Origin: Paracamarosporium sp. OC-R06-R3
Taxonomy: Eukaryota > Ascomycota > Dothideomycetes > Pleosporales > Didymosphaeriaceae
Direction of reading: 5' to 3'
Assembly (NCBI GenBank): GCA_019828545.1
Contig: JACVRA010000114.1
Span: 1-28,545, forward strand
Length of the DNA: 28,545 nt
The notes beneath the pieces were generated by a model. The model was not told the DNA's origin. It saw only the letters and a list, made by a program, of their open reading frames with translations, and did not search any database. Shown in pieces: positions 2,936-28,182 of this stretch. Each line of letters begins with the position of its first letter. Position 1 is the stretch's first letter. A program made the position numbers and the translations under genes.

Positions 2936-5314
2936 ATGTTGCGTCGCAACGGCACCCGCAGCTCGTGCGAGCCCTGTCGAAAGGCAAAGGTGAAATGCGA
3001 CCATCACTCCCCATTCTGCCAAAGATGCGAAGCGCGCGGCATCAGCGCCTCATGCGTCTACCACCCGGCTCCCTTGACGCGCTCGCCTCCACCCGAAGTC
3101 CGGCGGACTCACAAGCTGTCCACGCAGCAATATCAAACTTGCTTTGGAGTCCTGGATCTGTCCGGTGATAGGCTGAGCGAGCCGGCACTTCCCAGCACTC
3201 AAGCCTCATTTACCGCACCCCTGGCCCCACCAGCCAAGATGCAGATCTACACCAATGCTGCTTCCAACGCCATACACTCGCGCCCTCCCTCATCCTTCGG
3301 TGGTAGTGACGTAGAGCTCAACGCGCAGAGTGCTCCAAAGGCTGCCGGCTCTGGCTACTATGGCTCAACCAGCTACTACTCTGTCTTTGACCGAGTCGAC
3401 CACGTGCCGACCGCTACCACAGATTCTCAGCCTTCTGGGCCTGCTGGCGACACGCTCTCTGCAGGTATACGCGACGACGGCCCCGGCGTGAGCCGGTCAC
3501 TTCAAATTGGATCCTGGATACTCCAAAACCTCCAACACGTCTCCATCATCCAGTCCCTCGTCGACATGTACATTCGAACAAGCCAAGTATCCCCTACGGC
3601 GACTTTAATCCCTCTGAAAGCTGTGGAGACCCTGCAGCACCTGGCCAGTGGAGACGTGCATGCTCTGGCGCAAAAGATCACCAGAAATACGCAAAAGCCG
3701 CTACAGGTACCTCCTGAAATGCACGCAAGCACCTTCAGCACACTCTTCACCGGCGACAACCTGCGCTGGGAGTTTCTTGGTCTCGTCTTTGCCTGGGCCG
3801 GCTTGTCTCTGTCCATGTCTCTGCTGAATGAAAAAGGCTCTGCGACGACGCCAGACGGAATCAGCAAAACCTCCTTTGCCCAGCTCTTAACCGCTTGCAG
3901 TGACGCGTGCATAACCCTCTGCCGCCAAAATGCCCACACCAACGACATGCTCTCCTGGTGTCTCTATGAGAACCTCATTCTACTAACCTTTCAGCACGGC
4001 GAAGCAAGTGAGCATTAGCCCTAACACCCTATTTGTATCAATTTAGCTTCTAACAGAGAGGCAGGCCACGCATCTTGGCAGCGACTTGGAGACCTCTCCA
4101 CCGACATTCTGGCCCTCGGCCTGCACAAGGAACCCGCGGCGACGAGCACCTCGCCTATTTTCCTCGTCCAGGCTCGAAAGAAGCTATTTTCCGCCGCCTT
4201 TCGTGTCGACAAGAGCATCTCCACCTTCTTTGGCCGGCCACCCCGGATACCGGGTCACTACTGCGACGTCAGTCTTCCTCTAGACGTCGACGACAACCTC
4301 TTCCATCAAGAAAACTTTTGTGTAGACCACCTTCGCTCCGTACTCAACATGGCCGGTTGGAACATCGACTGCAAGATCCGCCCAGCTTCTTGGATTCGTA
4401 TGCGTCATATCGTTGGCAAAGTCACAGAGGAGATTTTGGAGCTGTCTCTGGGCGGCGCACAAGACAATTTGGTTTACAAAGTACAGTGAGTTCCTTCCAA
4501 CCCGACCCTGCCACTTGTAGGCGTTTGCTGAATCGTGTCAGGGACATATTGACTCGCTGCAATGAGACGTGGAACCGGATCCCGAGCCATCTGCAGTACA
4601 AACACAGCTGCTGGAACGATGGTACCCCACCAGGAACATGTTTGATGCTGCTGCTTGTCTACCTGGAACATCTGCAGAACGAATTCCAGCTGCAGAGATT
4701 GCTCTGCCGCCAACAAAGATGCGCCTCGGACGCGCTGATCAACATTAGCATGCGCATGCTCACAGCTGCAATGATTCTCCCCAGCATTCAAGTCGACAGC
4801 GTCAACATACATCGCGATCGTGCATGGATTGTAAGCAGTCTTCCTTGTACCTTCTTGCCAATGTCACTGATACGTATAGCTCTTGTACTATGCGCTCCCG
4901 AGCGCCGGCGTCCTTGCCATCGACCTTCTGATGCGCATGCAGCAGGGTTCTAACCCTCCACGCTCAATATCGAAGTCTGAAGTCATCAGACACACGAGCG
5001 TGCTCGCCGCATCGCTGCAATGGGCGTCGGAGTCGTCTGGCGGCAACCACAACCTGTGCGCCGGGGCGGCAAAGACGTTGTCGCGCATTTTGGACGAGAT
5101 TCTCAACAGCTCCGGCCAGAGGAGCGAGATGAGCACGAGCGGCGACGTGAGCGGCACCATGAGCGGCACCGTAAGCGGCAACATGTCACCCATGGCAATG
5201 GACATGGACTACAGCATGCTGGCAGAGCACGGCGTCGACTCGGAAACCTTCTTGAACTGGTTCGATAACTTGGAGTGGGAGACGATGCACCAGCCCGTGC
5301 CGCTTCAGGTGTAG
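2936..5314 (+). CDS. Zn2Cys6 fungal transcription factor (probable cluster regulator)
   Basis: Four exons (2936-4007, 4065-4485, 4542-4830, 4880-5314) give about 738 residues. The N-terminus carries a Zn(II)2Cys6 binuclear cluster, residues about 10 to 41, starting CEPCRKAKVKC and continuing with FCQRC. The middle is the fungal-specific transcription factor domain (MHR), recognised by blocks such as WQRLGDLSTDI, ARKKLF and FFGRPPRIPGHYC, and later PSAGVLA. The C-terminus is acidic, rich in Met, Asp, Trp and Glu, and fits an activation region. For the first intron I chose the acceptor at 4064, and for the second the one at 4541, because they keep the family sequence and give introns of 57 and 56 bp. 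As the only regulator in the window it is the natural candidate to control the neighbouring genes; that role is inferred. Confidence 0.88.
5147..5182 (+). repeat. three 12-bp tandem units inside the regulator gene
   Basis: GTGAGCGGCACC, ATGAGCGGCACC and GTAAGCGGCAAC follow each other in frame and encode a four-residue period (V/M-S-G-T/N) in the C-terminal part of the transcription factor. Such units can change in copy number between strains. They lie in a likely disordered linker before the acidic tail. Confidence 0.75.
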
Positions 5315-5490
5315 ATTGCGCTGATCTACAGTGGTACGCATCCCATGACCATCTCCTTTATGACCATATCTCAAAAGTACATCACAACTATGTTGTGACT
5401 ATATCAAAAATCGTATAATGACTATATTACAAGTATAACGTAACTATCACATGTCTAGTATATCATGAGTGTAGTACGAAGTGTTCCTAC
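5315..5490. other. 3' flank of the regulator gene
   Basis: No gene is seen. The stretch from 5370 to 5470 repeats loosely the pattern 'atgactatatca', which may be low-complexity 3' sequence. Confidence 0.35.
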
Positions 5491-5643: not shown

Positions 5644-5773
5644 AAGGGATAGGTACGTCACGACCACATGGCACTATTTCTTGGACAACAAAAGTCGCTA
5701 ACAAATACTGTTATGAAATACCAATTTTTATTGTTTGTCAAACTCGCTATTCTAGCTACAACATTGCCATCGG

Positions 5774-6883
5774 CTACTGCTGCGGAATCGTGGCAACCTT
5801 GTCGTGGTACATCTGCTCCGATTCGCGCCACAGCCTGTGCTGGCGCCAGTCGTCGAGCTTGGTAATGGCCGGGTAGAGAGCCTTGCCTGCCGTCTGGCTC
5901 GAGTCACGGGGTAGCAGACTGGGCAGGTAGGGGACTGCAATGACGCTGAGCGGCGGGCCGCAAGGGACAGGGACCTGCAGGGTGGGCTGCTTGTCGGAGG
6001 TGAAGTCCTGGTAGATCTGGACGGTGTTGTTGGGGCTCTTCGAGTCTGTGCTGATGTCGCAGACGACCGACAGGCGGCGGTCGGGCGCCTCCAGGCTTGC
6101 CATGGTGAGGAAGGGCGGGATGGGCGCGAAGATGCTGATGCAGTTGACGAAGATGTCGTGCTGAAGCACCTCTGGGTACTCGCTGGTGCGGTTGGTCTCC
6201 TTGCGGCCCCATTTGGTCATGTTGGCAGCAGGGATGCCGAGGTCGGTGAAGAACGAGGCGGAGCCGACGCCAGAGGTGCCGTGGGCGCCGATGAGGATGA
6301 TGGTGGGCAGGCGGCCGGCAACGGCCTGGCCTGCGGCGAGGTCTCGCTTCGTCTCCTCGAGCAGCGCTGCACGGCTCTGGTACGCGGAGATGCCCGGCAG
6401 CGGGCCAGCGTTGGGGTGCACGAGCTGGTGCGCCCAGGTCTTGATGGATAGCGCGGCCGCCATGGCGCCGGCTTCGGTGCCAAAGGTCAGAAGCTTCTCG
6501 CCCTTGTCGTTGACGAGGAACTCAAGCTCCAGCAGGAGTCCGCCGCCGCGTCTGAAGCGGTCGAGGACCTTGTCCCAGCCAGCCTGATTTCGGTATGCGT
6601 GTGCAGCATGCACGTGGACATGCTTGAGGGGAAAGTCGTCCATGGGGATGCCCTTCATGCCGAGGATGAGGTGATCTTGCGGGGCTGATACCCACGAGCC
6701 TGTCGGTACCAAGGTTGCTCCTGCAGCCTCGTACTCGTCATCTGAGAAGAAACGGATGCTGCTTCGTTCTATGTGCACATTGTAGCCGTCAGACATGAGC
6801 TGTTTTGCAGATTCAGGGGTGATGATGGCGCGGGTTCCAAAGGGGGCCGCTTCGGCTCTGAGATGAAGAGTCTTGCGTGACAT
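5774..6883 (-). CDS. saccharopine-dehydrogenase (Lys1-like) reductase with altered substrate pocket
   Basis: A single exon of 369 residues, about the length of yeast Lys1 (373). The family start LHLRAE at residues 6-11, R18, GMKGIP with K77, the HAAHAYRNQAGW block with the catalytic His at 95, LEFL with E121, the GAHGTSGVGSA nucleotide-binding turn and the LPSLLPRD block are all present. Lys1 catalyses reversible NAD-dependent cleavage of saccharopine to lysine and 2-oxoglutarate. Compared with yeast Lys1 from memory, the catalytic Lys77 and His96 are kept, but Glu78 is Gly, Lys99 is Arg, Arg131 is Lys and Asp319 is Pro. It also lacks a C-terminal peroxisomal tripeptide (ends IPQQ). These changes suggest a paralogue joining or cleaving a different amino acid/2-oxo acid pair, not the housekeeping enzyme. 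It lies tail-to-tail with the regulator gene and in the same direction as the NRPS. Confidence 0.85.
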   Translation of the reverse strand: MSRKTLHLRAEAAPFGTRAIITPESAKQLMSDGYNVHIERSSIRFFSDDEYEAAGATLVPTGSWVSAPQDHLILGMKGIPMDDFPLKHVHVHAAHAYRNQAGWDKVLDRFRRGGGLLLELEFLVNDKGEKLLTFGTEAGAMAAALSIKTWAHQLVHPNAGPLPGISAYQSRAALLEETKRDLAAGQAVAGRLPTIILIGAHGTSGVGSASFFTDLGIPAANMTKWGRKETNRTSEYPEVLQHDIFVNCISIFAPIPPFLTMASLEAPDRRLSVVCDISTDSKSPNNTVQIYQDFTSDKQPTLQVPVPCGPPLSVIAVPYLPSLLPRDSSQTAGKALYPAITKLDDWRQHRLWRESEQMYHDKVATIPQQ

Positions 6884-7593: not shown

Positions 7594-10500
7594 TTATCCA
7601 CTAATGATACCTTCTAGGATACGCCTCGTCGCTGTAGAAAGACTTTTGCTGAGCTGACCCGCAGCCTCGTCGCTAACCTTGTCGGTCCAGCAAGTAAGGC
7701 TTGCAACTACCCCGCTGCGTTCGTAGTGATCAACCTCGAGAACTATGGGATACTAGAAATTGACAGTTAGTTATTTTGCTTCCAAATGATGAGTATGTGG
7801 CTATCCTTACCTCAAGGGGGTCGTCACTGGGACGCTCTGCAAACGATAAAGGGGATGAGCTCGCCGCCTCCTTTGAATGCCTGCGAAAATTGACGATAGA
7901 GTCAAACCAAGCAGACGAGCTAGACATGCTCTCCGAAGTTTTGTTGCTCAATGCTGTCATTAGATGGTGCTGGTGTGGTAGACTCTGCAGCAGGTCGTCT
8001 TGCACTGCCTCTAGCAGCTTCGCCGTGCTGTGGGCAGCAGGAGAGAGCCGGCAGGCAGCAATGTTTAGAACAGGCCCAACAATTTGCTCGATGTTGTCAA
8101 TGGGTGCGTCGCGGCCCGCCAATATGTATCCAAATAGAACGTCGTCCTTGCCCGTGGCCTCGCTAAGCACAAACGCCCATGCAGCCCGGAATATGGTGGC
8201 CAGAGTGACACCAGACTTTTGCGTAATGTGAAGAAGCTCTTCAGAGAACTCGGCCATGTCAACAGGGGTTGAAAAGATCTCCTTCTTAGCGACTTCCCGA
8301 CTATTGCCAGTTGACAGTCGACATGGTTGCACATCGGCCAGATAGGTGTTCCAGTATTGTACACTCTCCGCAAAAGAGAGGTGCTGCAGTCCCTCAACAA
8401 AGTCGGCAAAAGGACGCACCGGCTTCTTCGTGGCAAACCCACCGTAGTTCTGCGAGAAGGCGTCAAAAATCATTGGCATCGAGCCGTGGTCTATTAGCGC
8501 ATGACTGATCTCGAGGCAGCAAGTAGCTGACGTTGCTGTGCGTTGGAAGATGGTCAGTCTGTGCTGTGGCTCCCACTCTTGCCATGTAGCGCGTGGAAGG
8601 TCCAGGGGATTCTCTGCCCAGGCGCTCGATCCAACTTCTACAGCTCTCTCATACCGATCCAAGACCACATTGAGGAAAGAATTGGAGTTTTTCATGTCAG
8701 CGATCATAATTGTTCGCAAGATCGGATTAGCAGACACTACTGTTTGCCATGCTGTGGCCAGTTTTTCCATGACCAGATCTCCAGGTCCGTTCACTTGAGT
8801 TTCGAAGACGAGTCTGGGTCTCCAATAGCAGTCATGATGTTGCTGCCCAAGAAGAATTGCGTTCTGAGTTGGGCTTGCTGGAAAGACGCTCACTACTTTC
8901 GCGGAGCTCTCTCCCGTGAAGCTGATTCCCTTGGACCTGAGCACAATCTCCATTCGCGCCAGATCATCGTAGTCCACACTCATAAGAGGAAAGTCGGAGA
9001 TGGTCTGACGAATAGGACTCTTGCTCATGGCAGTTGCTAAGAACTGCAGGTCGTGCTTGCAGTTTGAAATCCACGTGCTCACCATGTCCGAGTTTCTCAT
9101 GGATCTCGGGAAGAGCCACTCAAACTCCAGTTGGCCGTCCTTGACATATGAAGCAACGTCAAAAATAGCAAAGCGCGGCATGTTTGCGCTCATGTCATAC
9201 TGGTCGCCGAAGCCGTCTGTTACGACTGATAGGAGAGATTTGTCATTGTTTGATTGCTGCTGGACGCCGGTGAAGTTGAAGGTGAGCTCCGGTACATCAA
9301 TCGCCACATCTTTGGACGAAAGTTGTGCTGCGAAGAAGTCGATGAAGTCTTTCTCTGCGCTAATCTTCGAGTCCTTGATCCTGCGCACAAAATCGACTGG
9401 ATCATGGTCTGTAAGAACGTCGACCTGGACAGGGACAATTTTGGTGAACCATCCGACCGTGCTCGAAGGGTCCAGACCAGCTGCACGAGCTTCTCTACCG
9501 TGACCTTCGACACACACTGCAGGGGTTTGACGATCCGTGAATGTTTTCTTGAATGACAATGCCAATGCAGCGATGAAAAGATCTGCTGGTTTAGTTCTCA
9601 TGCTATCGTGACTTGACCCCAGGCAGAGACTGGTCAAGTCACGATCAAGCACAAACCCGGCTCTACTAGAGTCTTCATAGGTGAGATTGTCACGGTCAAT
9701 GTCCCAATAGGCGTAATTTGTAGGCGGAAAGTGGCGATCGGACACTGCGTGTGAAACTTTGTCCTCGCACCAAGTCTGAAAGGACAGTGGCGGGAGCGAA
9801 GATAGAGCCCCACCGCTTAGCGCCGCCTCCAAGTCTTCAAGAATCAGACGCCATGACACAATGTCGACAACTAGGTGATGGGCAACCATGAACAGAGTCT
9901 GAGTGCCGTCGAGACCTGAAACAAGATCTGCTCGCATGATTGGACCTTTAGCAATGTTAAGGCTTCTCTGGCTTGTCTGGACTAGGTCAAGCAAATTTCC
10001 AGGATGACTCAAAGTGGACTCTAAGGCCTGGAACGCATTCTCGGTGCTCCGGCTAATCCTTTGAGTTGCAAGTTTAGGACTTGATAAGTCGAACTTGGCG
10101 CGAAGCATGGAGTGGCGAGTAACAACTGCTTCCAGAGATTGTCGTAGTTGACTAATGCTGATTATTTTTGCCAATTTCACTTGGATACTCTGGTTGAAAT
10201 GGTGTTTGTGCTGCGGCGGGGCAAGCGTAGCATAAAGCTGTTGAATTGGAGAAAGAGCGAATGCGCGCTCTGTGGTCTCTTCCTTCAAGGTCTCGCTTGA
10301 GATTTCAATCTGTCGGGCGCTGAGTGCAAGCGCCTCAATATTGTGACCTTGCAAAACGTCCTTCACCGTGAATTCGAAACCCAAGTTGCGACTGCGAGCT
10401 AGTGCTTGCATTGCTGTAATAGAGTCTCCGCCGAGGGAGTGGAAGGAGCGGTTGATACCCACCTTTGTAGGTGAGAGACCGAGCACACTAGCCCACACTT

Positions 10501-13500
10501 CCTGCAACAGAACCTCCATTCGCGTTGTTGCTGGCTTTGGAGGATCATTGATTTCGTCACCGGTGGAGAAGAGCGCTGCTTCATCTTCAGTCAAGCCCGC
10601 AATCCAAGCTGCAATGACCTTGCGGTCAAGTTTGCCGGAGGTGGTGACTGGCATGTGTTTCAGGAGAGTGAGGCAGTCCGGAACCATGTAACGAGGCAAT
10701 GCTCTTGCTAGACTTTCCTTGGTATTTCTGGCGAGGTCGCAGATAGTCTCACTATCCTCAACTTCAGGATGGAAACTTGCCGAAGGTACTAATGAGTCTG
10801 GGCCGACCACCGCCACCAAGCGGTTTGCCAATGGTCCCTGTTTTAGCACAAAGCAGAGACCGTGCCGTCCACTTGCCGATGTCTCCAGATGATGTTCAAC
10901 TTCGCCCAGCTCCAATCGCTGGCCGCGGAGTTTCACCTGGTTGTCTTTCCGGCCGATGTAGATGAGGCAGCCTACATCATCGTACCTCACAAGATCTCCA
11001 GTCTTATACATGCGACCGCACCCTTGGGTTGAGGTTCGTGCCCATTTCGGATTGGAGATGAAGACTGCTGAAGTTTTCTCGGGCTCGTTGAGATATCCCC
11101 TACCGACGATCTCGCCCTGGATGACCAGTTCTCCAACTGCACCAATTGGCACCAACCGGTCGTGATCCTTGGGGTCCACAATCCACGTGAGACAACCAAG
11201 ACCGCGTCCGATAGAGCCTTGGTTGGACCCATCTCGAGCAACGGATGCGGCAGTACAAGCAATGGTGGTCTCGCTAGGCCCATAGCCGTTGATCAAATGA
11301 AGGGAGCCCGCCCAAAGCTTTGCCATCTCTGGTGCAATAGCTTCTCCTCCTACCACAATCGTTTGCAAGGTAGGCACATCAGAGGGTTGAAATAATCGAA
11401 GAGTAGAAGGTGTGAAGAACGACCAGGTTACCTTTTTCTCGTTGATAAACTCCATCAGGCGCTCCATGCGAGTAGCTTGGTTCGGAACCACGAGACAACC
11501 ACCGTGGACAAATGATGCCACCACATCTCCGACAGCGGCATCAAAAGCAATGGACGCAAATTGAAGTACTCTAGATCCTGTATGGAGACCATAGAATCTG
11601 CCGTGATACTCAACGCTGGTTATCAAAGAGCGATGCTCGATCATGACGCCCTTCGGTTTACCTGTAGAGCCCGAGGTCATGATCAGATAGGCCAGGTCTC
11701 GAGGTCCCACCTTAGGAAGCTTCCATGACGCCTCAACTGAGGGTAGAGCTCTGATGAGAGGGAGGCTCATGGTAACTGCACTCGCCTTTACCGTGGTATG
11801 AAACATTTCCGTGTTTGATGCCAAGACTAGGGGTCGTTTCAATTGACTGAGTATGCTTTGGATGCGTTCTGGAGGCGCATCAATATCAAGCGGAAGAAAT
11901 GCACGCCCGGACTTCATAATTGCGACAATGGAAATGATGAGTGGCAATCCTTTGATCAGATGCAGGCAAATGACAGTACCAGGGTTGAGCTCCACGAGAA
12001 ACTTAGCCAGTCGGCTTGAAAGCCCATCAAGCTCAGCGTAGGTAAGAGATCCATCCCAAGAGCAAACGGCAGGGTTATTGGGCTGTTGAATGGACCAGAA
12101 CGCGACGCGATCGTGAGCGAGGCCAGATACAGGCGCTGGCTCTGAGCTGTTCCAGAGGTCCAGGCTGCTCTTGTCCTTGCTGCTGACCGTGTCGATGGCG
12201 CTTAATAGATGGGCTTCATTCGCGACTGCCAATTGAAGCACCAAATGTTTCCACAGGTGAAGTATGCGTTCCATTTTTGTCGCTGAAATTGCGTTTTCAT
12301 CGAATCTTGCTTCCATGATTAAGTTGTCACCTGCCCAAACACATTCTAGAGCTAGGCAATGAGAATCTCTGTTCTCGACCTCGATAAGATCTCCAAACAG
12401 AGAATCTTGTTCTCGCGCTTCGGCTTCAGGCTTCAGTTGAATGACGAGCATTGTCTGAAACTGACAAGCAGTCTTTGCGCCTTCACACGTCTTGCTAATG
12501 TTATTGAGTCCAAAGTGCTCATGAGGTGTAGAATCAGAGGCTCCCTTTTGAACATGCTGCAAGAACGAAGCAATGGTTGAAGACAGATTGACAGGTATGC
12601 GGACTGGAACGGTGGCCAAGGTAGGTCCCACCATTTCGTCCACATAAGGGACCGAAGCGTTTCTGCCACTCATGACTGCACCGAAGACCACATCTTCAGA
12701 TCCGGTGTACTGACTGACAGCCAAAGCCCACGCTGCTCTGATCAATGTCGGTATTGTAATGCGGGTAGCTGGACGGGCAGGGATTACCAGCTCAACATCC
12801 AGTTTATCGGAATGAGTCGGTTTATAACCAGCTGTTGGCAGTCTCGGGAATTGAGGAGCGCAGCAATCCTTCAGTGCTTGTGACCAAAATGCATGGGATC
12901 TGACATCTTTTGAGGCCACCCGCGAAAAGTCGATAAAATTTTCAAAAGACATCTCAGTATTTCTTCCCAAGTCCATGCCTTTGTAGAGCTTTGCGACACT
13001 GTCCAAGCATATTTGCAAAGACCACGCATCGTACAGGGCGTGATGTAAAGTCCAAACAAACAATTGCTGGCCATTCTCGTACACCAAGGCAAGCCTTGAA
13101 AGGGGTTTGCCGATTGTCATGTGGTGCTGTGAGTCTTCCAACAGAAGTTGACGAAGATCTCGAGTTGTTCGCCATACCAGGTGCTCATCAACAACCGCCT
13201 GAAGTGTCTCTCGGAATCCCGATTGCACGAAGCGAGTGCGCAATATCGGGAACGACTTGTATACAGTGATCCAGCTGGATTTGAAGAGTTCAATGTCAAC
13301 ATCGACGGGTAGCTCGAAAACATACTGGGCCATGTATGAGCCAGGTCTCGTTACCATCGCCGCTGCCAGACTCTCTTGGAAAGAAGTGCAGTAATGAAGC
13401 TGTTGGATCGCTCTATGGTTGACGTTGCACTGCTTGGCTGTCGAATCTATGAGCTCGACAGAGGATAGCTCCGAAACGCGTTGGGCTGAACTGGCAATAT

Positions 13501-15467
13501 CTTTGGTTTCCACAAATGTAGCTGCATCTGCCAGCTCGGCAAGACTGGATGCTTGGAGAACATCTTTTGTGGTCAAGCAGACTCCATCTTTACGGAGGCC
13601 CGCCACCAACTTTATGGCGAGAAGAGAGTTTCCTCCTAGCTGAAAAAAGTTGGACTCGACTCCCAAAAATTGTGAATCGATAGATAGAAGCTTCGACCAT
13701 TGAAGCTGCAGAGTCTTTTGCATAGGTGTGATGCAAACGACATTGGAGGATGCTGTGAGAGGTGTTGAGCTCTCTAAAAGTCGCTTTTCCAGCTCTGCTT
13801 CCGCCAGCCCGTGCAAGGCAGATCTGTCGACTTTTCCTGAACTGTTCATGGGAAGCTCCTCAAGGGGAATGAAAGCGTTTGGAACCATATATGAGGGTAG
13901 TTTTGAGAATAGAGAGCTTTGAATGTCTTTGTAGAAGCCGGAGAGAATGTCTTGGGTGGATTTCGAGGTACCGTGGCACTTCTGAAGGACGCCATAATCT
14001 AATACCAGAAATGCTGCTAGTATCTTGGCTTCTTGTTGTTCGTTCCTCGCGATTTGATCGACGACGACCGCACTTGCTGATTTACCACAATATCTTTTGA
14101 TTCGTGACTCGATTTCACCGAGTTCAACTCTTTGGCCACGGATCTTAATTTGCCTGTCCTTCCTACCTAGGCAAGATATAGACCCGTCTTCGTTGAAACG
14201 TGCCAGATCACCAGTTTTGTAGAATCTGCGGGCCAAGCCAGTCTGTGAAGCCCATGCAGCATCTTCGAAGAAAGCTCCGGCAGTTTTCTCCTTGTCGCCG
14301 AGATAGCCACGTGCAAGAATGTCGCCTTCAATGACAAGCTCACCAAGCTCACCGGCTCCAACCAGTTGGTGGTGATTAGATTGGTCGACGACCCAAGGTC
14401 GGCAGCCCGTGGCATAGCCAATGTTAGATCGTGATGAATCCGGTTGGACTTCAGCAATCAAACAGAAAATGGTAGCTTCGGTAGGACCGTAACTGTTGAA
14501 TAGTTGAACCTTGTCAGCCCATTGATCCACGCAGTCCTGCGTTAGAGCCTCTCCACCGACCGACACGGTTTTCAAGGTCGGTACTTGATCAGGTGAGATC
14601 AAGGATATGACAGAAGGAGTGAAAAAGGCCCAATTAGCCTATTAGAAAAGAAGTTAGAAAGCCGTCATTGACATTGTTAGGTCAGGATATACTAACCCTG
14701 AGGTGATTTATCGAATCTACCAGTTCAGTGTGGTTGCTAGGTATGCAGATGCAGCCGCCGAAAATCAGTGTCGCAAAAATCTCAGTCATCGATGGATCAA
14801 AAGTATATGAGGTAGCCTGAAGTACCCTTGAGGAGGTACACATGCCCATTCGTCTTCCATGAGCCAACAGACTCGTGGACAAAGCTCGATGCTCAATCAT
14901 AACACCCTTGGGTTTTCCAGTGGAGCCACTTGTAAAATATACATAGGCTAGTTGGGAAGTAGAGATGCTTCTTAAACTAAGACTTGATTTCTTTGGAAGA
15001 CTCCTGATAAAGTCTGACCCCAGCCGTAGTGTCGTGGCAGAGGTGTGCATTGTTTCGCAGCCAGATTCGATGATCAACTGTGCGTCAGTCTGTTCGATGA
15101 TTTCTTCAACGCGACTTTGCGGGTAAGAAGGATCCACGGGTACAAATGCTGCTCCTGCCTTAAGAATGGCCAAGAAGGAGACGATAGCCCAGACAGACTT
15201 GTGTTGGCGACATGGGATGAGACTCTCGCGTTCTATCCCCAGACTTTGCAAGTGGTAAGCCAGTCTGGTAGAGTAGTCGTCCAATTGACTATACGAGAGC
15301 ATGTCTTGGGTAGAGCATGCCGCTGGAGCGCTAGGTCTGCTCTGTGCCTCTTGAAAGAACAGATCTAGGATGGTCACACCAGATGACGAGTGAGGTACAT
15401 CGTAGGGCTTTGGTGTGAAGGCCCAAGCACTGTCCAAAGACAGTGCTGCAGTAGGAATGGGAGCCAT
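7594..15467 (-). CDS. two-module non-ribosomal peptide synthetase, A-T-C-A-T-E-C
   Basis: Three exons on the minus strand (15467-14697, 14638-7811, 7752-7594) encode about 2585 residues. The apparent stop at 7730 lies in unspliced sequence: a 58-bp intron (7753-7810, GTAAGG...CTAAC...TTCTAG) leads into a last exon completing the final C domain. Domains in order: A1 (TSGSTGKPKG near 178), T1 (GGNS, Ser595), C1 (HHALYDAWS, His789/790), A2 (TSGSTGKPKG near 1242), T2 (GGDS, Ser1663), epimerase (HHLVVDIVSWR, His1844, and EGHGRE), terminal C (SHALIDHGS from 2302). The terminal domain has Ser in place of the first His, as is common in fungal terminal C domains that release or cyclise peptides; there is no thioesterase or reductase. 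Pocket residues read by eye: A1 D P T F S G S I F K, A2 D A G F V G G I A K; both keep the amino-acid-binding Asp, but I cannot assign substrates. Expected output is a dipeptide with a D second residue, perhaps a diketopiperazine or an oligomer. Confidence 0.93.
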
Positions 15468-18028: not shown

Positions 18029-19441
18029 CTACGGGTTTGCCAGCGGCCGGGACGCAGCCATGGCGTGTACCATCTTTGCAACGTCGTATGCGCATGCATA
18101 GCTCGTCTGGTACCCGAAACCACCATGACCATAATTGTGGACTATATTGATGTTTCCAATACGCTCCTGCTCCACCCTTGGGCCGGCTGTCCGGCATGGT
18201 CTGAAGCCCACCCTGTGGGAAAGAATGTCCAAGGTGCCTTGCTCTTGAAGCTTTTGCGCAAGCTGAGGACAGTAGGAGATGCATCGACGCAAAATACGCT
18301 CTGCGAGGCCCGAATCTGCCTCGGGCTCGGCCAGTGCTCTATGATATGATCCGCCAAGGACAGTCCCCCCTCCTGCAAAGCACGTTAGAACTGGTTCACG
18401 CAAGTCTCAGGCCGCAACGAAACCTACCCCCTGCGCGTTTCATGACGTAGGTCAGCTCTTCGACGCCTTCATCCGAGCCAGATACTCCAATCATACATCC
18501 AGGATCAGAATTGACAAGAATCGTCTGACCGCGCACAGGCACGACTGTCGAGTCTCGTACGCCGTGGAGCTGTGCGGCTCCCAAGCCCGTACAATTGATC
18601 ACAACATCGGCTGTCAGTCCAGTATGGTGCAGTTTTGCGGCATCAAGAATGTGATGAAGAGATGCGCGTTTGACCTGGACGCCATGTTTCAAGCACTGGC
18701 CGAGCAGCCAGGGTAGGTAGAGGACTGGGTTGATACAGACACTTGTGAAGTGTGTCGTGAACATGACTTCTGGCGAGTCGGCGACGGTTGTGTAATCAAT
18801 TCTAAACTGAGCCCACGGTAAGCTGAGATGGAAAACAAAATGTGGTAACATTACTTGCATTTGGCAGGAGATCCTTGAACCATGGTTCTGGCGAGTGCAG
18901 TTCGCATTGGACTGAGGCTGTGGCGTCAACACAGTCCTTGCGCCTTGTGTAAAGTATCGTGTCTAGACGAATGTCACTATGCTGTGAGACGACCTCTATC
19001 AAACTGGATGGCGTTTACCCTGAAAGTGTATGCCGGTCTCCGGACAGTCTGTAGCCAAGGCAGCAAGTGCAGGCCATGTATCGCGCTCCCACCGATGCTC
19101 TTTAGTACCGATAGCAGAGAAGCTAGACATTGGATGTTAGTTCTCACAACTACTCATTCTTGCAAGCTATCGACTTACGGTAGAAAATTAGCACCTGCCC
19201 ATGGAGAGGCATAATGGGGACTGGAATCGCCCGGTAGATGTTTTGCAACGAGCGTCACGCGAAGGGACTGGTCGCGGGACAGAACGAGCGCAGTAGTGAG
19301 ACCAATAACGCCGCCTCTTTATGCGTAATATGTCAATAAAGACTCGGATTGTGATCAGATCAGTTTTGCCTACCCTACTACCACAACATCCCGTGGAGAT
19401 GCACTCCGGGAAGCGAGCGAGCCTTCCTTCACTTGCAACAT
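18029..19441 (-). CDS. D-amino-acid oxidase (FAD)
   Basis: Six exons on the minus strand (19441-19374, 19316-19179, 19122-19019, 18962-18859, 18806-18428, 18372-18029) give 378 residues, the usual length. The FAD-binding turn [14 protein letters not shown] lies near residues 19-32 across the first splice. Further family blocks are FTSVCIN, the VPVRGQ turn, [13 protein letters not shown] across the last intron, VGFRPCR, and the signature [15 protein letters not shown] starting near residue 343. The enzyme oxidises D-amino acids to 2-oxo acids with release of ammonia and hydrogen peroxide. Many eukaryotic members end in a peroxisomal SKL-type tripeptide; this one ends ANP, so it may be cytosolic. 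The fourth intron (18807-18858) appears to use a GC donor, GCAAGT. It is divergently transcribed from the B3/4 gene. With an epimerase in the NRPS, a D-residue-processing role is plausible but unproven. Confidence 0.9.
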
Positions 19442-19619
19442 GTCTTCGATGTCAATGATGAGGGCATAAGATGCACATCTAGTTTCAGCGCGTGCTGCGG
19501 TATTATGCAAATGCGCAGGCAGTTGAGAGCGCTGACCAGATGGCGTCCGGGGTCGGCAGCGGAGCTCGGAATAGAAGTAACCCCTTTGGAGAACAGCGTT
19601 AGCGCGGCGCCGGACAGCA

Positions 19620-19627
19620 TCACGTGA
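19620..19627. promoter_or_regulatory. TCACGTGA E-box
   Basis: The same 8-bp palindrome as in the NRPS promoter, here between the oxidase and the B3/4 gene. A CACGTG core is also found upstream of the transporter at 25790-25795. Confidence 0.4.
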
Positions 19628-19646
19628 CTGTTGGTTTTCAATTGGG

Positions 19647-19653
19647 TATAAAA
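19647..19653 (+). promoter_or_regulatory. TATA box for the B3/4 gene
   Basis: TATAAAA lies 40 bp before the chosen ATG at 19693. This close spacing implies a short leader or a transcription start near the ATG, and supports 19693 over the ATG at 19672, which would be only about 20 bp from the box. Confidence 0.5.
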
Positions 19654-19692
19654 TCCATTCGCTGTGGACTCATGCTGCTGCAGGTCACCAAC

Positions 19693-20524
19693 ATGGACAG
19701 TTTCGCAATATCGAGCCAGGTGGCGCAGTTGCTGCCGCGCATGCAGGTGGTGGTCGTGGTTGCGCGCAATGTTCAGTTGAGCGCCACGACGCAAGAGCGT
19801 GTCCGTGCATTTGGAGAGGTGAGCAAAGAGTGTCGGCATTGTATGTGAGAGAGCGAAGACTTATCAGAGCGCACAGTCAACCGCCGAAAGTACGCATGCA
19901 AAGCTTAGCAGTTTTCCCAATGCACAGTCGCATCCATTGATCGCGCGCTATCGGGACACGCTGAAGAAGGCCGTCTCGCTCTCGGCCAAAAAGTTTCCTC
20001 AGTCCAACGAGTCGCTCTATAAGCGTCTGATCAAAGACGGCAGCGCTCCTAGGCCCATCAACCCGCTAGTTGACTTCTACAATGCAGTGTCCATCAAGCA
20101 TGGCGTGACAGCGGGAGCCTTTGACCTTGCCGACCTTGCTGCTCTGCCCTCTTCGGGTTCAGCACCTGCCTCGCTCGAACTTCGACTCTCGGGCTCGTCA
20201 GACACCTTCCTAGCTCTGGATGCGGCTCCAGACAGTGACCCTGTGCTGATACCACCGGGAGAGATTTCATATGCTCGTGGCAACATCATCCTAACCCGGC
20301 ACCTCGCATGGAGGCAGTCCTCGCAGGGGCTTGTGCAAGAGGGCACTCGCGATGTGGTGTTCGTGAGCGAAATCTTCAATGAGGAGGACTCGCCTGAAGC
20401 GAGCGAGCTGGCGAAAGCAGTCGAGACCGACTTGGTTAACGGCCTTCGTGACTTCTTTGACGTCGCGGAGCCTTTGAAGAGCATTCTGGGACAGGGCTTA
20501 GATAGCTTGAGTACTCCGTTATAG
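19693..20524 (+). CDS. freestanding B3/4 domain protein (tRNA-editing type)
   Basis: Two exons (19693-19818, 19928-20524) give 240 residues. The intron (109 bp) ends at ...GCACAG, which keeps the frame and joins AFGE to SHPLIARYRD. Recognised blocks of the B3/4 family are KKFPQSNESLYKRL, the INPLVDFYNAVSIKHG segment, GAFDL, PPGEISYARG, ILTRHLAWRQS and VFVSEIFNEE. This domain is the editing site of the phenylalanyl-tRNA synthetase beta chain, which hydrolyses wrongly charged tRNA. Freestanding relatives act in trans; the bacterial CtdA removes canavanine from tRNA(Arg). No catalytic synthetase domain is present. In this cluster a self-protection role against a made amino-acid analogue is attractive (inference). 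Such proteins also occur as ordinary single genes in fungi, so cluster membership must be tested. Confidence 0.85.
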
Positions 20525-21023: not shown

Positions 21024-23149
21024 ATGCGCCAACCACGTTCATTTGGCGCATGGGAAAGTGGCATTAGCCCCGAGATCCTTTCCGGCGAAGTAGTGTCATT
21101 GAGCGCTCCCCGTGTCGACGTATGATGTCCTTCGTCGCTAGTACTAAGAGTCATGGGCTAACGCACAACCAGACCGCCCGGAATCACATATACTACCTGG
21201 AAACCGATTGCGATGGCCATGGTCGCATTATGCGCACAGAAGTCTTCCCTCACCGGAAGATCCTTCCGGACAAGTACAACGTCGGTAGCAGTGTCAATGG
21301 ATATGGGGGGGGAGCTTTCATTGTTGACTGCGATGGCCGTGTCGTTTTCGTTGATGGAGTCACAAATGCTGTTAACAGAACAGGCACCGAGGCCGACGAC
21401 GTGGAAACGCTGATACATTCACTCAATGCCAAGTTTGCAGACCTGTGTCCGCATCCGAGCTCTGCGTCCTTCGTCCTCGCCCTTCGCGAAGAAGAGAGTC
21501 ATGGTAAAATGCACCCGGATACCAGCATCGTGCTCATTGATACTGTGTCAAAAACTTACAAGGTAGTGCAGTCTGGCGCCGACTTCTACTCTCATGCGCG
21601 CTTCAGTCCGGACGGTCAACACGTTTGCTGGCTCGAGTGGAACTTTCCACACATGCAATGGACTGGCGCTATCTTGAAGGTTGCAGAATTCCGCAACTCA
21701 GACTTTGTCAATGCACGCCAAGTTGTGAGCGACGTTGGAGTTGGTCAGCCACGATGGGGAACAAGCGGCACTTTGTACTTTGCCAGCGAGAGATCTGGAT
21801 ACCAGCAGCTCTATGCAGTATCGCTAGAAAGCAACACGTCTCGCTGGCTACGCTTCAAAGAGTTAGAGCAGTGCGAATTTGCCGGTGCAGAATTCTGGCT
21901 TTCGAGGTGAGTCACAAGAACTAGCCGTGCTATGATCAATGCTGATATGAGCACCTACAGTCTCACTTACTTTGAGCTCAGTGAGGGCAAGATGGTCGCC
22001 ACTTACACCAGAGATGCTACCAGTTTCGTCGCTGTGCTTGACTTGGCGACGGGCAAACACATTGATCTAGATCTTGAGATCAACGACATTGCCTACGATG
22101 CCATGCAACGCATCAATGATTACGAATTTGTCGTCATTGGCGCTTCGGCGAGCTGCTCACCAGCACTCTACCGCATCTCGCTCGATCCTGAAACTTTACA
22201 TGTCAAAAATGCCACGGTACTAGCCCGGAGCTTGGACATGTACCGCATACCGCAAGGAAGCCTGTCGACGCCGAAACCTTTCAACTTTCCCCGTTCGTCC
22301 CCAGACGCAGACACAAACCCGGCTTTGAAACATGGCCATGCCTTTCTAATGCTACCAACGAGCCCGTGGTACTGCTCGATACCGGGGAAACTACCTCCGT
22401 GCATCGTATCCGCGCACGGCGGCCCGACGAAACATCACCGACCGAGCGTCAATCTCGAGAGCCAGTTCATGACGTCGCGCGGCTTCGCCGTGGTGCTGCT
22501 CAACCATGTCGGCTCGACGGGCTACGGCGGCGCCTACCGGGACGCCATGAACGGGACCTGGGGCGTCTCGGACGTGCAAGACGCGGTCGACTGCGTCAAC
22601 GCGCTGGTGCGGCAGGGCGTCGTCGACGGCGCGCGCATAGGCATCACGGGCGGCAGCGCCGGCGGCTACCTGACGCTGCAGGCCATGTGCACGGCGCCCG
22701 AGACGTGGGCGGCAGGCATAAGCATCTGCGGCATCTCCGACATGCGCGCGTTTGCGCGCGACACGCACAAGTTTGAGAGCTGCTACGACCAGGTCCTCGT
22801 CCGCGACATTGCGAGCCAAAGGCATGCCGGCGTCAACGAGGACGCGCTGTATGCGGCGCGCAGTCCCGTCACGCACGCGGCCCGGCTTCGCGCGCCGCTG
22901 CTGCTACTACAGGGGGCCGTCGACCCGGTCGTGCTGCCGAACCAGGCGACCATGTTTGAGGAGGCGGCAAAGCGCCACTTGCCCAAGGAAAAGATGAATG
23001 GCTTCATGGCGGATGAGGCGGTCAAGCTTGTCATGTACGAGAACGAAGGCCACGGCTTCCACCTAGCAAGCTCCAAGAAGCACAGTTTGGAAGAGCAAGA
23101 GGCTTGGTGGCTCAGGTCATTGTGCGGGAAGAGACATTCGTTGCCGTAG
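21024..23149 (+). CDS. S9 family serine peptidase (prolyl-oligopeptidase/acylaminoacyl-peptidase type)
   Basis: Three exons (21024-21119, 21173-21906, 21961-23149) give 672 residues. The first exon supplies the family N-terminus FGAWESGISPEILSGEVVSL, joined through a 53-bp intron to a frame continuing with IYYLE. The N-terminal part is a beta-propeller with repeats such as ARFSPDGQHVCWLEW and PRWGTSGTLYFASE. The C-terminal alpha/beta-hydrolase domain has GGSAGGY (Ser509), VDPVV (Asp598) and EGHGF (His641), a complete triad. There is no signal peptide, so it should act in the cytosol. This group removes residues or acyl-residues from short peptides, and sometimes acts as an esterase or amidase on small molecules. 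Next to the ATP-grasp ligase and peptide carrier it may mature or degrade the product. The middle of the third exon (about 22500-22950) is very GC-rich compared with the rest. Confidence 0.92.
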
Positions 23150-23660
23150 ACAGGACGGTATTTCAACTACTCTGCTGCCATGCTCGTGACTCGGATACTC
23201 GCTTCTGGCATCTGCAGCAGACTTTTGATATTACCAGACACATGTAGATGCGGCTTTGGCTACGCGGACTCGTTTGAAATTTCATATGCAAACTCCATAC
23301 GGACTGGTTAAAACTTATCCTTCACTCTGTCGCCCAGGTTGTGGGATCAGAGTGAGGTAGAGTGCGGATTGGTTCGACAGCGAGTCCTCGCTCGTCCGTC
23401 GGGGTAGTGACGCATTGAGAATTAGCTGTCAAAGTCGCTCTTCTCCACCTTCCTAATTGGCATTCCGCACTCCGACATGCTCGTCCCAATGGGGCTGCCG
23501 CGCATTGCGCGTTAAGTACAGTACGTACATGCTTCAGCTGTCCATCTGCGACATTTACAATTCGGTCTTGCACCACCTCTTGACCCTTATCGCCGACAAC
23601 ATGTTCCAGGAAAGTGCATCTGTGTCTACGCCTCTCCGGCCAGCACAAGACACCACCAAA
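23150..23660. promoter_or_regulatory. promoter region of the ATP-grasp gene
   Basis: No independent gene is seen. A CACTCCGA word at 23468-23475 matches the motif found upstream of the desaturase-like gene and of the transporter. An ATG at 23601 is in frame with the chosen ATG at 23661 without a stop between, so a 20-residue longer N-terminus is possible. Confidence 0.45.
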
Positions 23661-25679
23661 ATGTCACCAACTTCCCAGAACATCCTGCTGGCCAGTCGCG
23701 AGGGTAAGGCGAGCAGCATCTTTAACGCCGGTAGCTGCTGACCGGCACAGGCAACGTCGTGTGCGAGTGGGCATTGGAGACGGCGCATTCACCTCAGCCC
23801 GCCTACTATTACGTGCTCCGGGTGCACATGAGCCTCCCCCCCAAGACCGACGACTCCTTTCACGGCCAGACTATCCAAATTGCTGAACTTCCGCCTGGCT
23901 TGAACTCTCAGTGTTCTTCTGCGCTCGACTTTCTCGATTGGGCTGCACGCCTCGTTTGCGTGGGCAGCGGCGGCAGGCATGCGGCCACTGTACAAATAAT
24001 CTTACCCGCCCAAGACGGATGCATTGTGCGTGCAGACATACTCCGCCAGCGCCTGGCTACCAGCAAGTCCATTGAACGAGTCGAGGAGTTTGTCTCCCTC
24101 GACCAGCATATGACTGCCTTTCAAGAGAGCCAAGGTGCAAGCACAGACCTGCTCAGTATCCTCAGCCACGCCGCTGGTGCCATTCTAGAACAGCAGCATA
24201 TCCAAAGCTTGCCAAGCGTGAACCAAGAGCTGCAGGCCAGGCTTTCTTTCCCATGGATCTGTCAGCTACCTCGCATCTCGCCCAGCACTTCCGTTGTAAT
24301 GCTAACAACTACCAGGCCCTGCTCCATGGACTCCGAAACGGCTGGTCCTCGTCGGCTGCAGGCCTGAAGTCATCATGGAGAGGTGGCTAACAGCAGCCTT
24401 CAACCTCGGCATCCACATCACCATCGTTGGACAGCATGGCCGATGGCTGCAGCACCAGGGCTTTTGCCAGTCTGTGGAAAAGTATATCGATATCGACATG
24501 GAGCTGGACGGCGGCTTGGCTGATCGCATTGCCGACGCCCTCATCAAAGATGGCACCGCCTACGACGGCATCACCACCTTCACCGACACCTATTTCGTCG
24601 ACGTTGCAAGGGCTGCAATTCGTCTCAAACTGCCCACAGCGCCCTTGTCCGCCGTGGAAACCGCCGTCGACAAGTACAAGACTCGGTCTCTGTTCCCCGG
24701 AGACTGCAACTCTTTCCAAGTCGACAGCTCCGCAGAACTTCGCCAATCCATGTCAGACGGTCTGGTCATAGCATACCCGCTCATTGTCAAGCCCAGCCAG
24801 GGCTGGGCCTCGGAGGGTGTCTCCAAGGTCACCAACGAGGCAGAGCTGTTTGCTGCCGTCGCTGCTCTCGAGCCTGCAAAACACGGCACTCACATTGTCA
24901 TTGAGACATATCTCGACGGCCCCGAGGTCGATGCCAATTTTGTGTTGCAAGACGGAAAGATTCTCTTCTACGAGCTGATCGACGACTTTCCCTGCACATC
25001 GGAACGAGACGATCTCCCCGGCCAAGAGAATTTCTTGGAGACTGAGATGCTCTATCCTTCAAACCTCCCACCCAACGAGTCAGACATCATCAGAGAGGAG
25101 CTGAGGAGTATGCTTGTCAAGCTGGGATTCCACACCGGCGTCTTCCATCTGGAGGCCCGAATCACCAACTCTTCAATGGCTTATACCTCGGCCAATGGCG
25201 TGGACCTGCGGCCTCATGGCAAGCAGTTGACCAAGGCTCCAACCGCCACACTGCTCGAAATCAACCAGCGCGCGCCTGGCATCATGGCTCAGTGTATCAC
25301 GGCATTCAAGAGCGGGGTGGACTGGACTGCTTTGCAACTGCTCGCAGCTCTGAAAGATACCGTGCGCTTTACTGCGCTGGCGCACGAGTACGCGCCCGAG
25401 GCTCAACCCATTACCGCAATCGTCTTCATCAACACCGAGTTTCCAGGAACTTACAACGGCGAGTGCTTTGCTGTTGATCTGAAGAGGCGGCGCCCTGATC
25501 TCGGCGCCATGGTCTACCAAGGTGGCTCCTACTACCACTATACCAATCCCATTGCAACAGCACCCAATCTCGTTGGTCATTTGCTTGTGTCATCTGACAA
25601 GGGCCGCAAACATATTCTTGCTGCGGCAAAGGAGATGCGGAGAGAAATTAGACTTCCCATTACACCATTTCGGGCGTAG
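23661..25679 (+). CDS. ATP-grasp ligase (carbamoyl-phosphate-synthase-like fold)
   Basis: Three exons (23661-23703, 23751-24260, 24316-25679) give 638 residues. The start has a good context (CCAAAATGTC). The second intron (GTCAGC...GCTAAC...CCAG) restores the block TPKRLVLVGCRPEVIMERW, the pre-ATP-grasp beta strand. ATP-grasp features follow: YPLIVKPSQGWASEGVSKV, the nucleotide-binding Lys and glycine-rich loop; IVIETYLDGPEVDANFV; and LLEINQRAPGIMAQ, the Mg-binding Glu/Asn block. About 190 N-terminal residues form an extra domain seen in large fungal members. The family makes amide or peptide bonds from a carboxylate, ATP and an amine via an acyl phosphate, as BacD-type L-amino-acid ligases do. 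Here it could add an amino acid to the NRPS product or make a dipeptide independently; the substrates cannot be read. Confidence 0.88.
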
Positions 25680-26136: not shown

Positions 26137-28182
26137 ATGGACACGCCCGAGGAGAAGAGTTTGTGAGTCTCACGTTTTTGGCGCAAAAGATGAGACACTG
26201 ACATTACAGACCCTCCAAGAATGAAAATTCTGCGTCGATTCCCACAGCCTGCTCTGAGCATCTTAATGCTGAGACCAATCATTTCGAGGAACCGACCGAA
26301 GAAGATCTGAGGACATGTCGACGAGAGGCAGATAAGCTGCCAAAAATGGCTATCCTTGTGGCCGTCGTCTCTCTATGCGAGCGCTATGCCTACTATGGCT
26401 TCTTGGGCATTCTCCGTGAGCATCACGACTCGTTCAAGAATGCAACTGGCCACTGACCCAAGGGCAGAGAACTACATTCAAAATCGCAGGGACGACCCGT
26501 TGCGCCCTGGCGCCCTGGGACTCGGCCAGGACATTGCCTCCTTGATGGTCAACTGTTTCACTCTCGTTAGCCAAGTCACGCCTCTCGCGACGGCAGCCAT
26601 TGCAGATTCATATCTTGGTCACTACAAGACCCTTCGCGCCTGTTTCTGGTTAGTCTCAACTCTCGCGCAGCCTCTGCGCAATACACCAACTTACTTGTTT
26701 GCAGCATGTACGCCGTCGGACTTACCATTCTTCTAATAACGTCTCTCCCGCCCTTGCTAAGGCAAGGCTCCGGACTTCCCGGTCTGATTGTCGCCCTAAT
26801 TATCATCAGTCTTGGTGTCGGAGGTGTCAAGTCCACGTTGCCGCCATTCCTAGGTCAGTTGAATCGCTATACCCGCTTGTCGCACAATCTCGTTGCAGCT
26901 GCTAAACCATAGCGACATTTAGCGGAGCAATGCCATGCGTCCAAGACTAGAATCAGGATCTCCAAGACAGGAGAGCGAGTCATTGTTGACGGTGAGGCGA
27001 CCGTGGAGTATGCTTTCAACGTCTACTATTGGTAAGAATTCACAATTTTGTTGAACCACGGTCGGGTCTGACACAAAAAGGTGTGTGAATATCGGTGGTC
27101 AAGCCATTGTTGCATCAACCTTGCTCGAAAAGGAGATCGGTTTCTGGGTCGCGTTTCTGATATGCACGTGCGCCATCTTCCTTGGCCTCACTCTGCTCTA
27201 CCTGGGCCGAAAGCATTATGGTGAGACCTCTTAAACCAGTCCGTCAAGCGTCGCGAGACGGAGTCTTAACACACTTCAACAGTCAATCTTCCTCCAGACG
27301 GCAGCGTTCTCCCATCGGCGTGGAACGTCATCTACATTGCCGTCAGAAACGGGTTCCGACTAGACGCCGCCAGACCTGAAAAGGTGGCCGAGGATACTGG
27401 CAAGACAGTAAAGTGGCGTGATAGCTTCATCGAGGAGATGAAAAAGGCGTTAGTCGCCGCGCGCATTGGGTGAGTGGTCGTCCTTGGTCACCCCTCCAGA
27501 GACGCAACCATATCTGACTCTCAATAGCGTCCCATTCGTCGTCTACTGGCTCTGCCAGAACCAACTCACCAGCAATACAATCTCCCAAGCAGCCAACATG
27601 GAGACAAGCGGTGTCCCCAACGACTTGATGCCCGACCTCAACGCCATTACCGTCCTACTATGCCTCCCACTGGCAACGCACGGCCTGTACCCGCTGCTGC
27701 GCAAGCTGGGCATCAGCTTCCCGCCGGTGACGCGCATCGCGCTCGGCTTCCTGCTCGAGGCCATGGCCATGGGCTTCGCGGCGGGCGTGCAGGGCTACAT
27801 CTACGCGTCAGGCCCATGCTACGACCATCCGCGCGCGTGCCCAGCGTCGCCAGACGGCAGCCTGCCCAACCGCGTCAGTGTCGCCATGCAGATCCCCATA
27901 TACGTCTTCGAGGGCCTCGGTGAGATCTTCTCAAACCCAGCCATGTACGAGTATGCCTTCACTGAGGCGCCTCACAGCATGAAGGCTGTGCTGCAGGCTT
28001 TCTTCGCCCTCACCGCCGCAGCTGGCTCTGCGCTCGGCCTCGCTTTAACCCCGACGTACAAGGACCCTTACTTGCTGGCCATGTACGCGTCGCTGGCCGG
28101 CGCCATGTTTGTCGGCGCCGTTGGGGTGTATGCGCTTCTACGGCCGAGGCGGAGACGCGCCGATAACGACGCTGGCTCGTGA
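26137..28182 (+). CDS. POT/PTR family proton-coupled peptide transporter
   Basis: Eight exons (26137-26162, 26210-26415, 26468-26648, 26705-26853, 26923-27031, 27081-27220, 27283-27469, 27528-28182) give 550 residues; every junction keeps phase. Family blocks: ERYAYYGF, the segment GILQNYIQN rebuilt across intron 2, GALGLGQ, the ATAAIADSYLGHYKTL loop, GVGGVKSTLPPFLAEQ across intron 4, SKTGERVIVDGEATVEYAF, the YYWCVNIGG signature across intron 5, VYWLCQNQ, and FEGLGEIFSNPAMYEYAF. About twelve membrane segments are expected. Relatives such as yeast Ptr2 import di- and tripeptides with protons. Placed at the cluster end, it may move a peptide product or re-import it. It is slightly short of the usual 580-620 residues but appears intact. 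Confidence 0.92.

What the first reader, a model, noticed from the sequence alone, without database searches (positions are those of the whole stretch)
2936..28182. Apparently undescribed NRPS cluster pairing a D-residue-making synthetase with an ATP-grasp ligase, a D-amino-acid oxidase, a Lys1-like reductase and a B3/4 protein
Nine adjacent genes carry a regulator, four or five amino-acid/peptide-modifying enzymes, a peptidase, a peptide carrier and a possible resistance protein. All act on amino acids or small peptides, and several starts are paired head-to-head. I know no described fungal pathway with this set. A short peptide containing an unusual amino acid is the most economical product.
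Basis: partly seen in the sequence, partly recalled or inferred. Interest (0 to 1): 0.8.

Follow-up and report, generated by a model that had tools for sequence, protein, structure and literature searches.

The report
Fungal peptide-synthetase cluster with tRNA proofreader
Nine intact neighbouring fungal genes look like a pathway for a short peptide with an unusual, perhaps arginine-like, amino acid; one gene resembles a bacterial enzyme that strips wrong amino acids off transfer RNA and may protect the producer from its own product.

The parts
1..2000 (.). AT-rich, RIP-mutated border (GC 17.6% and 12.6%)
   Evidence: composition; RIP composite index 1.41 and 1.28 in these two kb, 0.28 in 2001-3000, negative in 25 of 25 kb bins from 3001 to 28000, 0.20 in the last partial bin
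2936..5314 (+). Zn2Cys6 transcription factor, 751 aa, exons 2936-4007, 4047-4485, 4521-4830, 4880-5314
   Evidence: Zn_clus PF00172 E 1.8e-8; model
5774..6883 (-). Lys1-like saccharopine-dehydrogenase-family reductase, 369 aa, one exon, several active-site positions changed
   Evidence: phmmer to yeast Lys1 3UGK E 1.9e-95; residue table
7730..15467 (-). NRPS, 2559 aa, exons 15467-14697 and 14638-7730, architecture A-T-C-A-T-E-C
   Evidence: Pfam, motifs
12161..13363 (-). NRPS condensation domain 1
   Evidence: PF00668, 154 bits
9035..10264 (-). NRPS epimerisation-type condensation domain (HHLVVDIVS, EGHGR)
   Evidence: PF00668, 109.3 bits; motifs
7862..8785 (-). NRPS terminal condensation domain (SHALIDHGS)
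   Evidence: PF00668, 115.5 bits; motif
16418..17443 (+). desaturase-fold protein, 341 aa, three His boxes; best curated family GntB L-arginine gamma-hydroxylase, below cut-off; no other match to it in the genome at E 0.001
   Evidence: PF00487 E 6.5e-30; NF041365 107.3 bits, cut-off 380; His boxes
18029..19441 (-). D-amino-acid oxidase, 378 aa, six exons
   Evidence: PF01266 E 5.2e-40; 7CT4 D-amino acid oxidase E 5.8e-119; motifs
19442..19692 (.). 251-base stretch between the divergent starts of the oxidase and B3/4 genes
   Evidence: gene models
19693..20524 (+). free-standing B3/4 protein, 257 aa, CtdA-like (tRNA deacylase fold)
   Evidence: PF03483 E 1.2e-16; PDB by sequence; predicted model pLDDT 96.1; fold comparison
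21122..23149 (+). S9 (prolyl-oligopeptidase family) serine peptidase, 657 aa, exons 21122-21906 and 21961-23149
   Evidence: PF00326 E 6.8e-42; GGSAGG, DPVV, GHGF
23601..25679 (+). ATP-grasp enzyme, L-amino-acid-ligase-like / carnosine-synthase-like, 658 aa, three exons
26137..28182 (+). POT/PTR2 peptide carrier, 550 aa, eight exons
   Evidence: PF00854 E 3.8e-66

Best explanation
A biosynthetic gene cluster of an ascomycete (nearest named relatives are dothideomycetes, class recalled) for a short peptide that carries one D-residue and one non-proteinogenic, probably arginine-like, residue. Proposed order: the desaturase-fold enzyme hydroxylates (or desaturates) a free amino acid, most likely arginine; the NRPS activates two residues, epimerises the second, and its terminal C domain releases or couples the dipeptide; the ATP-grasp enzyme adds a further amino acid or amine; the altered Lys1-type reductase makes a secondary-amine (saccharopine-like) linkage or building block; the POT carrier moves the peptide. 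The B3/4 protein, divergently paired with the D-amino-acid oxidase, removes the unusual amino acid from mischarged tRNA, and the oxidase removes freed D-residue: both are self-protection. Shown here: gene identities, intact motifs including the E domain, CtdA-type fold, changed Lys1 site. Inferred: that the genes act together, every substrate, the direction of the Lys1-type reaction, and the self-protection.
Against: None of 8 inspected NRPS relatives (of 120 listed, of 7,875 found) shares a contig length with any of the 89 ATP-grasp or 119 B3/4 relatives listed. Cladosporium sp. NU13 has the ATP-grasp at 87%, but no row named Cladosporium is in the B3/4 or NRPS list; Dothidotthia symphoricarpi has the B3/4 at 98%, but no row so named is in the ATP-grasp or NRPS list, and no NRPS above 48% identity was listed. 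GntB score is 107 of a 380-bit cut-off. B3/4 identity to CtdA is 20-22%, so the edited amino acid cannot be read off. Of 41 bacterial loci with a B3/4 relative, 40 held no match to the eight other proteins searched and one held an S9 peptidase (the regulator query was misspliced there). Promoter motif: GCTCCG z 5.7 equals the 95% point of shuffled maxima, CGGAG z 3.9 is below its 4.3, 7- and 8-mers are no better than shuffles, and the regulator's own upstream region has no CTCCG. GC3 differs between neighbours (Lys1-like 0.80, NRPS 0.515).
Confidence: 0.4

Rival explanations
1. Mosaic neighbourhood: an NRPS with a few partners (regulator, Lys1-like, desaturase-like) beside unrelated amino-acid and peptide utilisation genes (oxidase, B3/4, S9 peptidase, ATP-grasp, POT) that sit here by chance or by gene movement near a RIP-mutated region.
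For: ATP-grasp and B3/4 have close relatives (87%, 98%) in different named fungi for which relatives of the other genes were not listed; no shared contig length between the ATP-grasp list and the other two; uneven GC3 and RIP border.
Against: Density of peptide-related genes with two divergent start pairs; the genome has another Lys1 and two more B3/4 matches, so these copies are extra; ATP-grasp/POT adjacency recurs on C204. Absence from the lists is weak evidence: clustered at 90%, limited by shared words, most rows unnamed, NRPS list cut at 120.
Confidence: 0.3
2. Defence and salvage unit: S9 peptidase, D-amino-acid oxidase, B3/4 protein and POT carrier take up and detoxify peptides with D-residues or antimetabolites made by others, and the NRPS is a neighbour.
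For: [quoted passage not shown] POT carriers are classically importers (recalled); oxidase and B3/4 are divergently paired.
Against: Does not explain NRPS, desaturase-fold enzyme, ATP-grasp ligase and altered Lys1 in the same 25 kb.
Confidence: 0.15
3. The NRPS makes a cyclic dipeptide of the benzodiazepinedione or diketopiperazine kind, released by its terminal C domain (A-T-C-A-T-E-C is the order of AnaPS, recalled), tailored by a few neighbours; no arginine-like residue is involved.
For: Domain order.
Against: A1 pocket begins with Asp (DPTFSGSIF), unlike anthranilate pockets of such enzymes (recalled); leaves B3/4 and ATP-grasp unexplained.
Confidence: 0.1

Closest known systems
CtdA, canavanyl-tRNA(Arg) deacylase (PDB 9F7E, 9MKL)
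   Different: 20-22% identity; fungal, beside an NRPS rather than a canavanine-degradation operon
GntB, L-arginine gamma-hydroxylase (NF041365)
   Same: residues 41-317 match profile positions 19-294 of 308, 107.3 bits; three His boxes
   Different: far below the 380-bit cut-off; substrate untested
Yeast Lys1 saccharopine dehydrogenase (3UGK)
   Same: 150 of 361 aligned residues identical; K77, H96, R18, E122 kept
   Different: E16G, E78G, K99R, R131K, D319P, H320Y (K99R and R131K keep the charge); 84 positions differ where yeast and the genome's other copy agree
L-amino acid ligase BL00235 (3VOT); carnosine-synthase-like fungal ATP-grasps
   Different: about 200 extra N-terminal residues, barely tested; substrates unknown. 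Cp1B of the E-64 pathway, which its authors call the biochemically validated example in fungal natural products, has no detectable sequence identity to other characterised ATP-grasps (PMC12568646, passages)
Bimodular NRPS relatives in Nemania diffusa, Xylariaceae sp. FL0594, Truncatella angustata, Glarea lozoyensis, Metarhizium album and three unnamed sequences
   Same: 42-48% identity over 87-99% of the query; the T, C, E and terminal C motifs searched were all found in 6 of 8; A1 pocket nearly constant in 6 of 8

Membership tests
Fungal NRPS biosynthetic gene cluster | intact NRPS plus adjacent tailoring, transport and regulator genes | tested here: met
Fungal NRPS biosynthetic gene cluster | genes co-inherited across species | tested here: inconclusive
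   only protein lists and contig lengths available; no co-location of NRPS, ATP-grasp and this B3/4 type seen
Fungal NRPS biosynthetic gene cluster | co-expression and a product that depends on the NRPS | not testable with these tools
   no RNA or metabolite data
CtdA-type tRNA deacylase | free-standing B3/4 protein without other synthetase domains | tested here: met
   257-aa intact gene; the frame scanned gave one Pfam family
CtdA-type tRNA deacylase | closer to CtdA than to PheRS B3/4 in fold | tested here: met
CtdA-type tRNA deacylase | deacylates canavanyl-tRNA(Arg) | not testable with these tools
   biochemical
GntB arginine gamma-hydroxylase | score above the curated cut-off of NF041365 | tested here: not met
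   107.3 of 380 bits
GntB arginine gamma-hydroxylase | three His boxes of the membrane desaturase fold (recalled) | tested here: met
   HEASH, HLVHH, HAVHH
Lysine-forming saccharopine dehydrogenase (Lys1) | catalytic Lys77 and His96 (roles recalled) | tested here: met
Lysine-forming saccharopine dehydrogenase (Lys1) | Glu16, Lys99 and Asp319 of the active site (roles recalled) | tested here: not met
   Gly, Arg and Pro in the window copy
D-amino-acid oxidase | FAD motif and oxidase active-site motifs (motifs recalled) | tested here: met
   [39 protein letters not shown]; 7CT4 alignment
L-amino-acid ligase (ATP-grasp) | ATP-grasp fold with conserved site residues, nearest to L-amino acid ligases | tested here: met
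L-amino-acid ligase (ATP-grasp) | ATP-dependent coupling of amino acids | not testable with these tools
   biochemical
AnaPS-type NRPS | A-T-C-A-T-E-C order (recalled) | tested here: met
AnaPS-type NRPS | first A domain selects anthranilate, pocket without Asp at position 235 (recalled) | tested here: not met
   A1 pocket DPTFSGSIF

The most novel reading that the evidence does not exclude
A fungal pathway that makes a peptide around an arginine antimetabolite and protects its own translation with a dedicated CtdA-type tRNA-proofreading enzyme encoded in the cluster: tRNA deacylation in trans as self-resistance of a eukaryotic biosynthetic gene cluster, with a Lys1 duplicate turned into a tailoring enzyme.
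Probability: 0.25. Interest if true: 0.75.

Novelty: new variant of a known kind. Interest (0 to 1): 0.5.

Why it matters
If right, a B3/4 gene beside an NRPS would become a searchable mark of fungal clusters whose products contain mischargeable amino acids, and the free-standing B3/4 proteins of fungi (18 of the 119 rows are named as fungi; I found no paper on their function) would gain a testable role. It would also bring the carnosine-synthase-like ATP-grasps, whose fungal members have no tested function that I found, into fungal peptide pathways.

Tried and rejected
Ordinary Lys1 duplicate: rejected as the simple reading, since five positions at which yeast and the genome's other copy agree on a charged residue are changed (two of the five changes keep the charge). 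Pipecolate route through a saccharopine oxidase: dropped, because the flavoenzyme carries the motifs of D-amino-acid oxidases. Vinylglycine route through an RtxC-like desaturase (recalled): not pursued once GntB was the best curated match; only a paper listing was seen. Relatives of the desaturase-fold protein in genome contigs and viral contigs, and of the ATP-grasp P0001 in viral contigs: none confirmed. Bacterial B3/4 neighbourhoods: 41 loci, one S9 peptidase, nothing else of the set. Shared promoter motif: 7- and 8-mers no better than shuffles, GCTCCG borderline; one search left out the regulator's upstream region, which has no CTCCG. Paired duplication of ATP-grasp and POT: not supported, the C204 carrier is third closest of the eight loci compared, of at least ten. 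Shared contig lengths between the B3/4 and NRPS lists: two, 5,413,791 (an Apiospora record, too long to mean anything) and 23,786 (P0161 and P0274; about 0.05 expected by chance); the latter is suggestive only and that NRPS is of another size.

Substrate prediction of the A domains: pockets read by motif with GrsA numbering recalled; no assignment attempted. Host identity could not be read. ATP-grasp families outside the fold lists, and the N-terminal part of the ATP-grasp, were not tested.
Full report
What is there. The window is the entire contig C12 (28,545 bases) of a 43.1-Mb genome in 337 contigs. GC is 17.6% and 12.6% in the first two kb, 41.7% in the third and 47-62% from there on; the first two kb have strong RIP indices (composite 1.41 and 1.28). 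Gene models were built by hand from open frames and splice-site candidates, without RNA evidence. Nine intact genes fill the rest: regulator 2936-5314 (+), Lys1-like 6883-5774 (-), NRPS 15467-7730 (-), desaturase-fold protein 16418-17443 (+), D-amino-acid oxidase 19441-18029 (-), B3/4 protein 19693-20524 (+), S9 peptidase 21122-23149 (+), ATP-grasp 23601-25679 (+), POT carrier 26137-28182 (+). Pfam supports each. Five in-frame acceptors exist for the B3/4 intron; the one used gives a protein that aligns over all 257 residues with the 257-residue Dothidotthia protein P0090 (98%).

The NRPS. Motifs give A-T-C-A-T-E-C with the key residues in place. A search of 5.8 billion proteins (7,984 candidates scored, 7,875 significant, 120 listed) shows many larger synthetases at up to 36% and eight relatives of 2,226-2,965 residues at 42-48% identity: P0214, P0262, P0266, P0279, P0280, P0289, P0290, P0319. 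Nothing above 48% was listed. Read by motif, the A1 pocket is DPTFSGSIF in the window and the same, or with S/A and I/V changes only, in six of eight; P0319 is partly readable and has a further change, and P0280 lacks the region. The A2 pocket DAGFVGGIA is shared by two of eight (P0214, P0319); five have DAMF-type pockets and one DMYFIGVIT. So the enzyme belongs to a dispersed set with a nearly constant first pocket and a changing second one. The E-domain motifs are intact, so a D-residue is expected.

The desaturase-fold protein. It has three His boxes, no PDB relative by sequence at E 0.1 and no second match in the genome at E 0.001. Three NCBIfam models match at E 0.01; the best is GntB, L-arginine gamma-hydroxylase, 107.3 bits, the others 17.2 bits; the GntB cut-off is 380. 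That GntB is a transmembrane enzyme making the linear intermediate that is then cyclised comes from one passage of PMC10367076. I conclude 'amino-acid-hydroxylase-like', not GntB.

The Lys1-like protein. Its match to yeast Lys1 3UGK is E 1.9e-95. The genome has another Lys1 on C38. Aligned, the window copy keeps K77, H96, R18 and E122 but has E16G, E78G, K99R, R131K, D319P and H320Y, whereas the C38 copy agrees with yeast at all ten of these positions. K99R and R131K keep the charge. In all, 84 positions differ where yeast and C38 agree. The roles of these residues are recalled; a paper search for them found nothing. A changed substrate is the simplest reading, not a proof.

Do the genes belong together? 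For: density, two divergent start pairs, extra copies of Lys1 and B3/4, the recurrent ATP-grasp/POT order, and CTCCG half-sites in six of seven upstream regions, statistically borderline. Against: the ATP-grasp has an 87% relative in Cladosporium sp. NU13 and the B3/4 protein a 98% relative in Dothidotthia symphoricarpi, but no rows so named occur in the other two lists. No contig length is shared between the ATP-grasp list and the B3/4 or NRPS list; two are shared between B3/4 and NRPS lists, one of them meaningless for its size, neither involving the eight close NRPS relatives. These tests are indirect: no other fungal genome could be searched, most rows are unnamed, lists are clustered at 90% and the NRPS list is cut at 120.

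Most likely mechanism. A short peptide with one D-residue and a modified, probably arginine-like residue is assembled by the NRPS and extended by the ATP-grasp ligase; the B3/4 protein proofreads tRNA charged with that residue and the oxidase removes free D-residue. Shown: identities, intact motifs, CtdA-type fold, altered Lys1 site. Inferred: substrates, order, joint action, protection. I give this 0.4 and a mosaic neighbourhood 0.3.

Novelty. Ten answered paper searches of an open-access library listed no fungal cluster with this set. Four of them found no paper at all (16, 24, 75, 76); seven aimed at single components; the lists of 33, 60 and 92 were cut, and apart from the passages and sections named above I saw listings only. 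A Fusarium study names a carnosine synthase gene together with NRPS and other genes in a figure legend (one passage of PMC7376913), so such ATP-grasps near NRPS genes are not new in themselves. The tRNA-proofreading idea is the novel part.

Noticed in passing
window 1-2000: AT-rich stretch with a strong RIP signature at the contig's left end; the gene set abuts a mutated repeat-like region.
   Followed up: partly
L026 (G000 C204:42001-52000): A second carnosine-synthase-like ATP-grasp gene followed on the same strand by a POT carrier, the order seen in the window.
   Followed up: partly
L023 and L024 (G000 C118:1-20000): Two divergent ATP-grasp genes near an ABC transporter, a class-IV aminotransferase, a GFO/IDH/MocA oxidoreductase and a methyltransferase-like protein: another possible ATP-grasp pathway.
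   Followed up: no
P0290 (Glarea lozoyensis): A relative of the NRPS is annotated with a pyrroline-5-carboxylate-reductase domain (PF14748, PF03807) at its C-terminus, perhaps a merged neighbouring gene.
   Followed up: no
P0161 and P0274: A B3/4 relative and a larger NRPS share the contig length 23,786, so they may lie on one contig: a possible second B3/4-NRPS neighbourhood.
   Followed up: partly
L020 (G000 C241) and L022 (G000 C262): Two further B3/4-domain matches in the same genome whose gene identity was not established.
   Followed up: partly
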